Shown here piece after piece: positions 42,726 to 52,974 of a DNA stretch of 64,000 nucleotides. The notes beneath the pieces are model-generated. The model saw nothing but the letters and a program-made list of their open reading frames with translations, was not told the origin of the DNA and ran no database searches. The position numbers and the translations under genes are program-made. Position 1 is the first letter of the stretch. Each line of letters begins with the position of its first letter. This DNA comes from Ovis canadensis (taxonomy: Eukaryota; Chordata; Mammalia; Artiodactyla; Bovidae), in the NCBI RefSeq assembly GCF_042477335.2, contig NC_091727.1:120683501-120747500 (forward strand), in the 5' to 3' direction.

Positions 42726-42930
42726 GGGCTTCCCTGGTGGCTCAGAGATTAAAGCGTCTGCCTGCAATGCGGGAGACCCGGGTTCGATCCCTGGGTTAGG
42801 AAGATCCCCTGGAGAAGGAAATGGCAACCCACTCGAGTATTCTTGCCTCGGAAATCCCATGGACACAGGAGCCTGGTGGCCTACAGTCCACGGGGTGGAC
42901 GTGACTGAGCGACTTCACTTTCACTTTCAG
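42726..42930 (+). mobile_element. Bov-tA SINE
   Basis: The element has a GGCTTCCCTGGTGGCTCAGA head, GGGTTCGATCCCTGGGTTAG B-box region and a CTTCACTTTCACTTTC end. Confidence 0.94.
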
Positions 42931-43464: not shown

Positions 43465-45215
43465 ACTTTGAGAAGAATGAAAGCAAAAACAAACCACACC
43501 TAAGGTAGGGGATGTAGCGAGCCAAACTCAAATAGGCAGCCATAGTAAACAATAAATATTAGAGCAAAATAAATGAAAGAGAGAATAGAAAAACCACAGA
43601 GGTACTCAACAAATGAAAATTTTGTTATTTAAAAAGGTAAAAAAATTGACACAACTTTAACAATATTGTTCAAGGGAGGAAGAAAAATCAAATTACTAAA
43701 ATTAGAAATAAAAAAGGAAAAATTACTACCAACTTTAGAGAAATAAATATAGTTGTAAAGGAATACCATGGCACTAAATAGAAAACTTAGATGAAATGAA
43801 CAGTTTTCTAGAAATACACAAATGACTGAAAATGACTCAAGAAGAAAATGAAAATCTGAAGAGCAAAGGGACAGAATTAATCATTTTTAAACTTCTTGCC
43901 CAACCTACCTCACAAAACTCCCTCCCTCACTCCCTGCACCCTATCTAGACCTAGATAGCCTCTCTGGTGAATTCTACTGAATATTTAAACCAAAAGTCAT
44001 GCCAATTCACCACACATGGATTATAAATGTATTTATAGAATTGGAAAGGAACATTTCACAGCTCATTCTATGAGGCAGTATTACTCAGATGCAAAAACTA
44101 GAGGCCAATTATTTTGTAGAGTGCTCCTGAATTTTGGTTCATCCAGTACTTGCTAATGATGAACTTCAGTTTTGCATCTTTGACAGGAAAATGACAGAAA
44201 TGATGCTGTGTTCATATCATCTCATTTTATCAGGCGGTTCATGATTTTAATGTGTCCCAATATTGATAATATTGATTGGTATCACTTGATTAAAGTGGTT
44301 GCTGTCAAGCTTCTCCACTGTCAAGTTACTCTCCCCTATTCTGTAATTAAAACCTTTTTTTGTGTATTGTAAATTACAGAAATATTTTATTTTTCAATAG
44401 ATGGGGAAACAGTGGAAACAGCGGCTAACTTTATTTTTCTGGGCTCCAAAATCACTGCAGATGGTGATTGCAGCCATGAAATTAAAAGACGCTTACTCCT
44501 TGGAAGGAAAGTTATGACCAACCTAGACAGCATATTAAAAAGCAGAGACATTACTTTGCCAACAAAGGTCCGTCTAGTCAAAGCTATGGTTTTTCCAGTA
44601 GTCATGTATGGATGTGAGAGTTGGACTATAGAGAAAGCTCAGCGCTGAAGAATTGATGCTTTTGAACTGTGGTGTTGGAGTAGACTCTTGAGAGTCCCTT
44701 GGACTACAAGGAGGTCTAGCCAGTCCATCCTAAAGGAGATCAGTCCTGGGTGTTCATTGGAAGGACTGATGCTGAAGCTGAAACTCCAGTACTTTGGCCA
44801 CCTGATGCGCAGAGCTGACTCATTTGAAAAGACCCTGATGCTGGGAGGGATTGGGGGCAGGAGGAGAAGGGGGCGACAGAGGATGAGATGATTGGATGGC
44901 ATCACCTACTCAATGACCATGGGTTTGGGTAGACTCCGGGAGTTGGTGATGGACAGGGAGGCCTGGCGTGCTGTGGTTCATGGGGGTCACAAAGAGTCAG
45001 ACATGACTGAGCATCTGAACTGAACTGAAACTTTAGATTTATTAATTTATTTATATCTATTTAATTAATAGTCTATTATTTTACTAAATGAATCATAATC
45101 TGTCTCTATCATTATTTATTTTGAAGTTCATATTGTTCCAACCTTGGCCAGTGGGAACCTCCTTAAGCTGGTCTCTGTCCTTTTGACATCTCCCCATCAT
45201 TCTTTGAACAATTTG
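43465..45215 (+). repeat. Inverted repeat arm 1
   Basis: The reverse complement of about 51893-52957 matches this arm, for example AAATAGGCAGCCAT (about 43530 and reverse complement near 52912), GAATGAGCTGTGAAA and CTCCCCATCATTCTTTGAA (about 45186). The arm is lengthened by a BovB insertion at 44392-45030 that arm 2 lacks. Confidence 0.85.
44392..45030 (+). mobile_element. BovB 3' fragment inside arm 1
   Basis: The fragment runs from ATGGGGAAACAGTGGAAAC to ACTGAACTGAAAC. It encodes LGRKVMTNLDSILKSRDITL and VVMYGCESWTI, the C-terminal end of BovB ORF2, before a stop. The matching site in arm 2 (about 52080) is empty. Confidence 0.93.
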
Positions 45216-48229: not shown

Positions 48230-49005
48230 CTGGTGAAATTAAATAGTGAGATACCACTACATGCTTACTAAAATGGTCAAATAGAAAAATCTGACAAAAT
48301 CAACTACTGGCAAAGATGAGGAACAACAGGAACTCTCATTCGTTGTTAGTGGGATTGCAAAATGGTAGAGTCACTTTGGAAGCAATTTCTTACAGAGCTA
48401 AACATTGTCATACCACATGATCTAACAGTTATGCTCCTAGAGAGTTCAACAATTGATTTGATAGCTAATGCCCACATAAAAACATGCACATGAATTTTAT
48501 AACAGCTTAGTTTATATCTCTCTCTCACACACACACACACAAATTGGAAGCAACCAAAGTGTCCTTTGGCCTTCCCTAGTGGCTCAGATGGTAAAGTGTC
48601 TGCCTACAATGTGGGAGTCCTGGGTTTGATCCCTGGGTCTGGAAGATCCTCTGGAGAAGGAAATGGCAACCCACTCCAGTACTCTTGCCTGGAGAATCCC
48701 ATAGATGGAGGAGTGGGGTAGGCTATAGTCCATGGGGTTGCAAAGAGTCAGACACGACTGAGTGACTTCACTTACTTGGAGTGCCCTTTAATATACGACT
48801 GGATAAACAAACTATGGTACATCAACATAACAGAATATTACTCAAGAATGAAAAGAAATGAGCTATCAAATCACAAACAGAGATGGATGAAACCAAAATG
48901 AATGTTATTAAGTAAAATAAGCTCATCTGTAAAAGGTTATACACTGCATGCTGCCGATTATATGACATTCTGGAAAAGGTAAAACTGTAGAGCGAATAAA
49001 AAATA
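48230..49005 (+). mobile_element. Old L1 3' region
   Basis: GTGAGATACCACTACATGCTTA, GGAACTCTCATTCGTTG and GGTACATCAACATAACAGAA are characteristic of the end of ancient L1 ORF2. It is interrupted by a Bov-tA and ends just before the FAM209-like poly(A) region. Confidence 0.75.
48568..48779 (+). mobile_element. Bov-tA SINE with target duplication
   Basis: This is a complete Bov-tA in sense orientation. AGTGTCCTTT (48558-48567) and AGTGCCCTTT (48780-48789) flank it with one mismatch. It inserted into the old L1. Confidence 0.93.
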
Positions 49006-49013
49006 TCAGAGGC

Positions 49014-49044
49014 TTTTTTTCTCTTGCTTCAGAATAGTTTTATT
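49014..49044 (-). terminator. Poly(A) signal and A-run of the FAM209-like gene
   Basis: On the minus strand AATAAA (49039-49044) lies 58 bases after the stop codon. Eighteen bases later there are seven A residues (49014-49020). The A-run may be a genomic cleavage region or the remnant of a retrocopied poly(A) tail. Confidence 0.6.
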
Positions 49045-49102
49045 ATTTTGTATAAGGTATGTCAATGCTCTACAATTCACCTACTTTGATGCACAAATCC
49101 AC

Positions 49103-49615
49103 TCAATTGGATTCTTCGTTGCCCCAGAGCTCATATACTGTAATGTTCTTGTGTGCATCTACAGAAACGTCGACATTGGAAGGACTGAGGTAACTCCCAT
49201 TTGCCGTGGTGAGTTTCAGATTCTGCATACTGGACACAAATTTTACAAGGTCCATCATGAGCAGGATTAAGGTTTGGAACATGTAGTCTTTGTTGGGAGA
49301 TGCCTTTTCCTTTTTCCTTCTGGGAGAGCAAAATGAAGTGCCCTGATGGGCAGGAGAATTCTGCACATTACTGTAGCCACTTTCTCCTGCCAACTTCACT
49401 GTCAGGTACATCAGCACAGTGAGAAAAATCCAGAACAACGTGATCTCAAGCCAGTTTTGGGCATGCTCTGGTAGATTCTGCCAAATTAAAAAGCGCCCTC
49501 TGCACAGAGCCTTCCCCTGGAGTTCTTCGGCTTTCTCTCTTAGAGAAGTAAAAATTAAGGCAGAAACATAGGTAACACCCGTGGATAAGCACAGGAACCA
49601 TTTGAGGGACCACAT
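49103..49615 (-). CDS. FAM209-like transmembrane protein, intact 170 codons
   Basis: The protein resembles mammalian FAM209A/FAM209B along its length, and 170 residues is close to the human proteins as I recall them (about 171). Residues 1-20 form a hydrophobic signal-like start (MWSLKWFLCLSTGVTYVSAL). The family block LREKAEELQGK lies at 25-35, RFLIWQNLPEHAQNWL at 41-56, a membrane segment at about 57-76, a basic PRRKKEKASPNKD at 98-110 and a helical FVSSMQNLK at 126-134. I chose the ATG at 49615 because family similarity begins there; the frame stays open a further 69 codons upstream without similarity. FAM209 in mouse is a nuclear-envelope partner of DPY19L2 in spermatids and is needed for acrosome formation. 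Here there is no frameshift or stop. The coding frame is uninterrupted, so this is either a retrocopy or an intronless coding design. Function of this copy is inferred, not shown. Confidence 0.85.
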   Translation of the reverse strand: MWSLKWFLCLSTGVTYVSALIFTSLREKAEELQGKALCRGRFLIWQNLPEHAQNWLEITLFWIFLTVLMYLTVKLAGESGYSNVQNSPAHQGTSFCSPRRKKEKASPNKDYMFQTLILLMMDLVKFVSSMQNLKLTTANGSYLSPSNVDVSVDAHKNITVYELWGNEESN

Positions 49616-49699
49616 GGTGAGCTGAGAGGAAAAGGCCCTTGGTGCTGTGGTCTGCCCAGGCACCTGGAGACTGAGGACCAGCCAGGGCTGAGCCCTTGC

Positions 49700-49723
49700 T
49701 GATGTCACAGAGGGCCCCGCCCC
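49700..49723 (-). promoter_or_regulatory. CRE-like site and GC box upstream of FAM209-like ORF
   Basis: TGACATCA on the minus strand (49700-49707) is one base from a full cAMP response element. GGGGCGGGG (49715-49723) is a GC box. They lie 85-108 bp upstream of the chosen start codon. CREM acts through such sites in spermatids, which would fit the gene, but binding is inferred. Confidence 0.45.
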
Positions 49724-49829
49724 AGCCAGAACCCATGTGGCCATTGTGACGACTTCAGGACACAGGATAAGGAGGCTTGCAGAGGTCAACTGGGAGTAGG
49801 GCTTAAAGAGAAATGGCAACATTTCCAGC

Positions 49830-50100
49830 TGCCAATTGAAAAAGAGGTGGGGAATGACAGGATGCTATCTCCTTGCCTGTGTATTATTTCTGAACCTGGT
49901 GCTCTACTGGGAAGGTGAGTTCATCTTCTATTTTTATTTTTCCATTTGTTAAATCCAGACACTGGGTGAGCAGAGCAGACTCGTGGGCATGTGCCCCTGT
50001 GGAGCAGAGCGCCAAGTGGGAAAGAAAGATAGTAAATGAGAGGCCACCAACTAGGAGCCACTGATGTGTTTTCTGTGGCCTACAGTGTTCCTAAAAATGA
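49830..50100. other. Upstream flank of the FAM209-like gene
   Basis: No repeat is recognised. I searched it by eye for a direct repeat of the sequence next to the A-run (ATATCAGAGG) and found none, so a retrocopy duplication is not confirmed. Confidence 0.4.
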
Positions 50101-50104
50101 CTGT

Positions 50105-50228
50105 GCTAAATTGCTAAGTTGTGTCTGGCTTTATGAGACCCCATGGACTATGCCCACGAGGCTCCTCTGTCCCTGGGATTCCCCAGGCAAGAATACTGGA
50201 GTGGGTTGCCATTTCTTTCTCTCCAGGC
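50105..50228 (-). mobile_element. BovA monomer fragment
   Basis: Antisense AAATTGCTAAGTTGTGTCTG through CTGGAGTGGGTTGCCATTTC is one diverged BovA monomer. Confidence 0.88.
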
Positions 50229-51892: not shown

Positions 51893-52957
51893 AAGAATGA
51901 TGGGGAGATGTCTGTCAAAAGGACAGAGAGCCCAGTTTAAGGAGGTTCCCACTATCTGAGGCTGGAACAATATGAATATCAAAATAAATAATGATAGAGA
52001 CAAGTCATGATACCTTTAGTAAAATGAGACTATTAATCAAATAGATTTAATTAATAAATCTAAAGTTTGGTGAGGAATAAAATATTTATATACTCTAAGA
52101 TAGAAAAGAATGTTTTAATTACAACATAGGGGAGAGTAACTTGACAGTGGAGAAGCTTGACAGCAACCACTTTAATCAAGTGATCCAAGGGAAAATCATC
52201 AATATTGGGATACATTGAAATCATGAACCACCTGGTAGAATGAGATGATATGAACACAGTATCATTCCCACCATTTTCCTGTCAAAAATGAAAAACATGA
52301 TATTCATCACGAGCAAATACTGGATGGAGCAAAGTTAAAGAGAATTCTTCAAAATAACTGGTCTCTAATTTTAGCATTCAAGTTATACTGCCTCATAGAA
52401 TGAGCTGTGAAAAGTCCCTTTCCACTTCTATGGATACATTTTGAATGCATGTGTGGCCAATTGGCATGACTTTTGGTCTAAATATAAGGTAGAATTCAGC
52501 AATGAGGCTATCTGTGTCTAGTTATGGTAGGGGGACTTTTGTGAGGTGGTGGGACAAGATGTTTAAAAATACTAATTCTATCACTTTGCTATTCAAATTT
52601 TCATTTTCTTCTTGAGTCAATTTCCGTCATTTGTGTATTTCTAGAAATTTATCCATTTCAACTAAAATTTATAATTAGTGCCATGGTATTCCTTTACAAT
52701 GATATTTATTTCTCTAAAGTTGGTAATATGTTTTCCTTTTTTACTCCTCATTTTAGTAATTTGAGTCTTCTTCCTCCCTTGATCAATATAGCTAAAGTTG
52801 TGCCAATATTTTGACCTTTCTAAATAACAAAATTTTCCTTTGTTGAGTACATCTGTCATTTTTCTATTCTCTATTTCCTTTATTTTGCTCTAATGTTTAT
52901 TGTTTCCCATGGCTGCCTATTTGTATTTAGTTTGCTACATCCCCTAACTTAGGTGTG
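51893..52957 (-). repeat. Inverted repeat arm 2
   Basis: This arm is the reverse-complement partner of 43465-45215 and lacks the BovB insertion of that arm. Identity looks moderate rather than high (many single differences and small gaps), so the inverted duplication is old and not being homogenised strongly. Confidence 0.85.
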
Positions 52958-52974
52958 ATGTATTTTTCTTTCAT

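What the first reader, a model, noticed from the sequence alone, without database searches (positions are those of the whole stretch)
49103..49723. Intact FAM209-like gene in a probable Y-chromosome amplicon region
Seen: a 170-codon frame without disruption, with signal-like start, membrane segment and the conserved QNLPEH region, a poly(A) signal, and GC-box plus CRE-like motifs within 110 bp upstream. Known: FAM209 is a spermatid protein working with DPY19L2 in acrosome formation, and its usual locus is autosomal. Inference: a spermatogenesis gene copied to a male-specific region and kept open while neighbours decay is a candidate male-benefit gene. I am not aware of a described Y-linked FAM209.
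Basis: partly seen in the sequence, partly recalled or inferred. Interest (0 to 1): 0.78.

Follow-up and report, generated by a model that had tools for sequence, protein, structure and literature searches.

The report
Ruminant X-type FAM209 gene copy
The window holds an intact copy of a sperm-head gene (FAM209) that belongs to a set of extra copies found in ruminants, which sit, as far as relatives show, on the X chromosome rather than on the Y as first guessed.

Summary
On the minus strand, 49103-49615 is an uninterrupted 170-codon frame matching the whole Pfam FAM209 model (1.5e-66); GC box, CRE-like site and AATAAA are where stated. The Y reading is not supported. The nearest named relatives (takin 93%, Reeves' muntjac 85%) lie on 146.7 and 149.6 Mb sequences, longer than any bovid Y. 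They fall in a 28-row clade whose 15 named rows are all ruminants; its Bos row's longest sequence has the length of UMD3.1 chromosome X, and a buffalo paper lists a 'FAM209B-like' gene on the X. Ruminants also keep a canonical FAM209 and a second paralogue. The CRE-like site looks ancestral: 31 of 38 translated 5' extensions in the family fit it 90-120 nt before the ATG, against 1 of 132 background windows. Both flanks are shared with sister copies, so the copies spread as DNA, with promoter. The protein keeps 26 of 44 positions conserved in 60 non-ruminant FAM209s and changes at a near-neutral pace: function is likely, not shown. The window's own chromosome was not tested. Annotated in databases; apparently undescribed as a story.

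The parts
49103..49615 (-). coding sequence of a FAM209-like protein, 170 codons plus stop
   Evidence: PF15206, 1.5e-66; 93% to takin P0002
49700..49707 (-). CRE-like site TGACATCA, 92 nt upstream of the ATG
   Evidence: 31 of 38 translated 5' extensions in the family are compatible with it at 90-120 nt, background 1 of 132
49715..49723 (-). GC box GGGGCGGGG, 108 nt upstream of the ATG
49616..50045 (-). 5' flank homologous to the 5' flanks of other FAM209-like copies (presumed promoter and 5' UTR)
   Evidence: P0009, P0046, P0052 to 49822, P0050 to 49876, P0057 to 50045
49039..49044 (-). poly(A) signal AATAAA, 58 nt after the stop
48780..49102 (-). 3' flank, partly homologous to other FAM209-like copies beyond the poly(A) signal
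   Evidence: P0119 matches 49744-48911, P0146 matches 49130-48780

Best explanation
This is a member of a multi-copy FAM209-like gene set of ruminants on the X chromosome. An early ruminant duplicated the autosomal FAM209 gene together with its promoter; one descendant line moved to or arose on the X and multiplied as DNA segments. The copy in the window is the one-to-one relative of a takin and a muntjac copy, so it is older than the bovid-cervid split. Proposed action: CREM/CREB-family activators bind the conserved CRE-like site in round spermatids, giving a short mRNA and a signal-peptide, single-pass membrane protein of the nuclear envelope/ER that works beside, or competes with, canonical FAM209 (partner of DPY19L2 in acrosome attachment). 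Shown: family membership, intact frame, grouping with takin and muntjac copies, recurrence of the promoter site by back-translation, shared flanks. Inferred: X linkage of the window itself, spermatid expression, nuclear-envelope location, interaction.
For: Tree of 48 rows: window + takin + one unnamed metagenome row + muntjac 100/100; X-type clade of 28 rows 100/100 (window, 15 named rows all ruminants, 12 unnamed); canonical ruminant FAM209 (P0106, P0098) and a second ruminant paralogue group branch outside it. Of 9 rows in that clade on sequences over 50 Mb, 8 are on 146.7-180 Mb sequences; the longest sequence of the Bos row P0019 is 148,823,899 bases = UMD3.1 chromosome X. Buffalo LOC112582031 'Protein FAM209B-like' is listed on the X-chromosome in PMC10740893. 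More than one locus per species: Rangifer P0006 and P0011 both on 157,939,627; M. reevesi P0003 and P0148 both on 149,604,489. The CRE-compatible site recurs in monkeys, orangutan, African wild dog, toothed whales, a bat and deer; both flanks are shared with sister copies, the 3' one past the poly(A) signal. Against muntjac there are two in-frame length changes and no frameshift; neutral chance of no stop and no frameshift 0.5% at 10% distance.
Against: One X-type row (P0014, M. reevesi) is on an 81,078,014-base sequence, not X-sized. The takin, muntjac and deer sequences are called X by size only; my control with the X gene FATE1 returned no named ruminant, and P0148's plastin-3-like part looks like a processed copy, so it does not prove X. 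Identity to muntjac (84.6%) is within the neutral range at 8-10% distance, and the odds of staying open ignore that only open copies are annotated. The window keeps 26 of 44 positions conserved in canonical FAM209, 2 of 6 in the membrane segment, so the DPY19L2 role may be gone. The promoter stretch is GC-rich (65%) but CpG-poor (observed/expected 0.09), as for DNA long methylated in the germ line. The node joining canonical ruminant FAM209 with the other ruminant rows is only 92/91. No expression data.
Confidence: 0.72

Rival explanations
1. A Y-linked FAM209 copy: transposed to the male-specific region and kept as a male-benefit gene.
For: Autosome-to-Y transposition of testis genes is known in Bovidae (ZNF280BY/AY, PMC3032696, title and start of abstract seen). 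The window's own chromosome was not tested.
Against: Nearest relatives are on 146.7 and 149.6 Mb sequences. No FAM209 among the Y ampliconic families in the passages read of PMC11436988. 3 papers hold both FAM209 and 'Y chromosome'; by title and abstract start none is about a Y-linked FAM209.
Confidence: 0.08
2. A non-functional but still open duplicate: one of many decaying FAM209-like copies, caught before its first stop codon. This does not exclude X linkage and overlaps with the best explanation in that part.
For: Some sister copies are cut short or carry stretches that match interspersed repeats of the window (P0012, P0047, P0062). Window-muntjac identity fits neutrality. The takin copy has lost the stop codon; window-takin changes in the CDS (12 of 170) are not rarer than in the 5' flank (1 of 43; Fisher p 0.47), and against paralogue P0009 65 of 170 against 19 of 69 (p 0.14). 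18 of 44 family-conserved positions changed. CpG-poor promoter.
Against: Frame intact in window, takin and muntjac with no frameshift; identity to muntjac (84.6%) is close to that of the canonical gene between buffalo and deer (87.2%) and of the second paralogue between sheep and deer (84.5%); CRE-like site kept.
Confidence: 0.35
3. The ordinary autosomal FAM209 locus of the species.
For: Same family and same promoter element.
Against: Canonical ruminant FAM209 is a different protein (window-buffalo P0106 44%; P0106 keeps 43 of 44 conserved positions, window 26) and a separate branch.
Confidence: 0.02
4. A processed retrocopy of a FAM209 mRNA.
For: No intron in the coding sequence.
Against: The 5' flank with CRE and GC box is shared with sister copies to 50045 and its CRE-compatible site with primates, a wild dog and whales. 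The 3' flank is shared with two sister copies past the poly(A) signal, to 48911 and 48780. Only a 7-A run follows the AATAAA. Whether the canonical ruminant gene has a coding intron, and so whether the first step from autosome to X was by RNA, was not tested.
Confidence: 0.06

Closest known systems
protein FAM209-like, Budorcas taxicolor (P0002) and Muntiacus reevesi (P0003)
   Same: One clade with the window (100/100); 93% and 85% identity; takin shares the 5' flank and frame
   Different: Takin lacks the stop at the window's position and reads on; muntjac has two in-frame length changes
Bos taurus BOS_25692 (P0019), chromosome X of UMD3.1 by sequence length; buffalo LOC112582031 'FAM209B-like', X
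   Same: P0019 is in the same X-type clade; both X-linked
   Different: P0019 is 61% identical over 154 residues, another older paralogue with a different C-terminus; the sequence of LOC112582031 was not seen
Canonical FAM209/FAM209A (mouse Fam209; buffalo P0106)
   Same: Size, signal start, membrane segment, Cys38, Phe42, CRE-compatible 5' flank in relatives
   Different: 44% identity to buffalo; 18 of 44 conserved positions changed, 4 of 6 in the membrane segment
X-ampliconic testis genes of human and mouse (recalled; Mueller et al. 2013 seen only as a reference)
   Same: Testis gene acquired and multiplied on an X chromosome
   Different: Only one FAM209 copy in this 64 kb window

Membership tests
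FAM209 family (PF15206) | Full-length match to the curated model above cut-off | tested here: met
   223 bits against cut-off 27, model 2-149 of 149
FAM209 family (PF15206) | Signal-like start and one membrane segment | tested here: met
   Hydropathy peaks at residues 3-25 and 54-79; a third, weaker peak at 111-130; hydropathy only, no topology program
FAM209 family (PF15206) | Luminal Cys and the Phe whose loss weakens mouse FAM209 | tested here: met
   C38 and F42 kept; Phe from PMC8627553 (passages); mouse numbering F43, matched by eye to F42
[quoted passage not shown]
   Known for mouse FAM209 (PMC8627553, passages)
Y-linked male-specific gene | Location on the Y | tested here: inconclusive
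   Relatives on X-sized sequences; own genome search not answered (10 tries)
Ruminant X-type FAM209-like clade | Inside the 28-row clade | tested here: met
   100/100 for the clade, 100/100 for the window's group of 4
Ruminant X-type FAM209-like clade | The window itself on the X | tested here: inconclusive
   By grouping only; of 9 rows on sequences over 50 Mb, 8 are on 146.7-180 Mb and 1 on 81 Mb
X-ampliconic testis gene | Several near-identical copies nearby | tested here: not met
   tblastn of 148 family proteins finds one FAM209 locus in the 64 kb window; wider surroundings not seen
Processed retrocopy | Homology between copies limited to the mature mRNA | tested here: not met
   Shared flanks upstream of the CRE and past the poly(A) signal; transcript ends themselves not mapped

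The most novel reading that the evidence does not exclude
Ruminants put an acrosome-formation gene on the X, multiplied it early, and kept its spermatid promoter, so that X-bearing spermatids express diverged FAM209 proteins that modulate or compete with the autosomal FAM209-DPY19L2 complex: a post-meiotic X gene family with scope for X/Y sperm conflict.
Probability: 0.2. Interest if true: 0.65.

Novelty: new member of a known kind. Interest (0 to 1): 0.4.

Why it matters
FAM209 loss in mice gives a globozoospermia-like defect (PMC8627553). A clade that includes the main livestock species seems to carry a second and a third set of such genes, one of them on the X, named 'FAM209-like' in databases and not followed up in the papers I could search. 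A buffalo semen-trait study lists one as one of 12 genes for an abnormal-sperm signal spread over 29-127 Mb of the X, which is suggestive at most. Whether these copies are expressed in spermatids, and unequally between X and Y sperm, is directly testable.

Tried and rejected
Y linkage: rejected as the leading reading, see rivals. N-terminal extension to 49822 or 49744 as true protein: rejected, because relatives read the same flank in different frames (P0006, P0011, P0042 in one; P0009, P0031 in another). Neighbouring genes as chromosome markers: Pfam scan of 138 chosen open frames out of 214 of 75 residues or more gave reverse transcriptase, L1 trimerization, endonuclease (0.0016) and Gag p10, otherwise hits of 0.0068 or weaker that I take as chance. 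The 76 frames left out include 13 at 32.9-36.5 kb, taken from their translation to be L1, and the FAM209 frame, scanned apart. X control with FATE1: 59 hits, no named ruminant, so it could not name the takin or muntjac sequence. Loci with DNA: viral contigs and genome contigs gave no relative, so no orthologue DNA and no dN/dS. Structure prediction was not run: it would not decide between the readings. Rows dropped: the tree used 47 of the 148 family proteins held plus the window, chosen for length and origin; 120 of the 244 hits were listed.

Full report
What is there. The reported feature is on the minus strand: ATG at 49613-49615, stop at 49103-49105, 170 codons with no break. It matches the complete Pfam FAM209 model. 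GC box, CRE-like site and AATAAA are as described. Hydropathy shows a hydrophobic start, a strong membrane segment at residues 54-79 and a weaker peak at 111-130.

Relatives. A protein search gave 63 hits. The best named ones are takin 'protein FAM209-like' (93%) and Muntiacus reevesi (85%). Rangifer, Moschus, red deer, other muntjac rows and Bos taurus BOS_25692 mostly lie at 57-68% (over 62-100% of the query), and whales, carnivores and other non-ruminants at 42-51%. A second search from an alignment gave 244 hits, 120 listed, among them the canonical ruminant genes: buffalo FAM209A (P0106) and white-tailed deer FAM209 (P0098).

Tree. In a 48-row tree rooted on two marsupials, all ruminant rows form one group (92/91). 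Canonical FAM209 (P0106, P0098) branches off first. The rest (100/98) splits into a second paralogue (98/96: Bos BOS_15852, sheep, deer, musk deer, a muntjac and an unnamed row) and a 28-row clade (100/100) made of the window, 15 named rows, all ruminants, and 12 unnamed metagenome rows. Window, takin, one unnamed row and M. reevesi form a 100/100 group. It holds a bovid and a cervid, so the copy is older than their split. An earlier 35-row tree agrees on the group (100/100) and the clade (100/99).

Chromosome. The longest sequence of the Bos row P0019 (BOS_25692; 2 sequences in the cluster) is 148,823,899 bases, which is chromosome X of UMD3.1 (table passage in PMC5571935). By the same table the longest sequence of BOS_15852, 81,724,687, is chromosome 16, in a cluster of 5 sequences. 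The other X-type rows on large sequences are on 146.7, 149.6 (two), 157.9 (two), 166.1 and 180.0 Mb; one is on 81.1 Mb. I call the takin and deer sequences X by size; by recalled karyotypes large autosomes are unlikely in the deer. PMC10740893 (passages seen) lists buffalo LOC112582031 'Protein FAM209B-like' on the X-chromosome, one of 12 genes given for abnormal sperm over 29.12-127.08 Mb. A table in PMC6923926 (section 5 read) gives bovid X assemblies of 82-146 Mb and cattle Y assemblies of 15-39 Mb; the T2T cattle Y is about 59 Mb (PMC11436988, passage). The window's own chromosome was not tested: the host-genome search did not complete in 10 tries.

Promoter and flanks. Proteins with a 5' extension let me read flanks of other copies indirectly. 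Of 38 family proteins with 30 or more extension residues, 31 are compatible with TGACATCA 90-120 nt before the ATG, among them New and Old World monkeys, orangutan, African wild dog, two toothed whales, a bat, deer and X-type copies; 1 of 132 coding windows of the same length is. The 7 misses (P0004, P0040, P0057, P0059, P0060, P0062, P0063) are all unnamed metagenome rows; P0060 and P0062 are read in the frame in which an intact site would be a stop codon. The rows are related, not independent, and compatibility is by back-translation, not DNA. Flank homology among copies runs to 49822 in several and to 50045 in one, and on the 3' side past the AATAAA to 48911 (P0119) and 48780 (P0146). The copies therefore spread as DNA segments with promoter. 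The promoter stretch is CpG-poor, which does not favour an unmethylated germ-line promoter. The link to CREM in spermatids is from general knowledge of CRE sites in haploid-cell genes.

Constraint. Canonical ruminant FAM209 keeps 42-43 of 44 positions that are conserved in at least 95% of 60 non-ruminant FAM209s; five rows of the second paralogue keep 29-32; the window 26; 14 other X-type rows 24-27 (two of these lack the start). Cys38 and Phe42 are kept. Identities: canonical buffalo-deer 87.2%; second paralogue sheep-deer 84.5%, Bos-sheep 83.3%, Bos-deer 73.9% over a stretch that includes the frame-shifted flank; window-takin 92.9%; window-muntjac 84.6%. A crude neutral simulation gives 82% mean identity at 10% distance (5-95%: 77-87%), so identity to muntjac alone does not show selection. 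The chance of no stop and no frameshift is 0.5% at that distance and 1% at 8%, with an assumed indel rate of 0.1 per substitution; annotated copies are preselected for being open. Distances between the species are recalled, and the species of the window is not known. Window and takin differ at 12 of 170 coding and 1 of 43 flank residues (p 0.47), and takin has lost the stop.

Surroundings. With 148 family proteins as queries, 147 have a match wholly inside 49040-50220 and the last (P0119) matches the same locus with a longer 3' reach; the few other places hit (by P0012, P0047, P0062) are stretches that recur in the window and look like SINE and L1 pieces. Scans of 138 of 214 open frames found transposon and retrovirus domains and no other clear gene.

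Literature. 58 papers hold FAM209 (40 listed). With 'Y chromosome': 3; 'protein FAM209' with 'X chromosome': 2; with 'X-linked': 6; with 'bovine': 26 (20 listed); with 'ruminant': 1. By title and abstract start, none of those listed is about a ruminant X- or Y-linked FAM209 set; the buffalo table is the one mention I found. Supplements could not be searched, and most subscription journals are not held. Mouse function is from PMC8627553 (passages and one section). FAM209A protein is listed in bull sperm (PMC10629479, passage) and a FAM209B transcript in bull spermatozoa (PMC5343582, passage); which paralogue those are was not resolved.

Verdict. A real gene-like feature; Y setting not supported; member of an annotated set of ruminant X-type copies. 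Function in spermatids is plausible and untested.

Noticed in passing
window 42731-42802: tRNA-like match (Rfam RF00005, 29.6 bits against 29), most likely the head of a Bov-tA-type SINE rather than a tRNA gene (SINE name recalled).
   Followed up: no
window 43485-44368 and 52097-52967: About 880 bases of inverted repeat (81-87% alike, three pieces) flank the FAM209 locus, about 8 kb apart; not identified, possibly two copies of one transposon.
   Followed up: no
window, first 33 kb: One open frame matches retroviral Gag p10 (5.3e-10): an endogenous retrovirus remnant; the summary does not say which frame.
   Followed up: no
proteins P0012 (Moschus) and P0047 (Muntiacus muntjak): Sister FAM209-like copies carry stretches that match repeats elsewhere in the window (four places for P0012; two, at 32.7 and 34.1 kb, for P0047), so repeat insertions seem to break some copies.
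   Followed up: partly
search: FATE1, an X-linked testis gene, gave hits in camels, pigs, hippopotamus and whales but in no named ruminant: possible loss or strong divergence in ruminants.
   Followed up: no
protein P0148 (Muntiacus reevesi): An annotated 'plastin-3-like' model fuses a FAM209-like start with a plastin-3 piece on the same 149.6 Mb sequence as the window's muntjac relative; probably a gene-model artefact over a processed plastin copy (judged by eye).
   Followed up: partly
proteins P0022, P0031, P0035, P0042, P0090: A second, autosomal-looking ruminant FAM209 paralogue (Bos: sequence of chromosome 16 length) keeps 29-32 of 44 conserved positions and branches between canonical and X-type copies.
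   Followed up: partly
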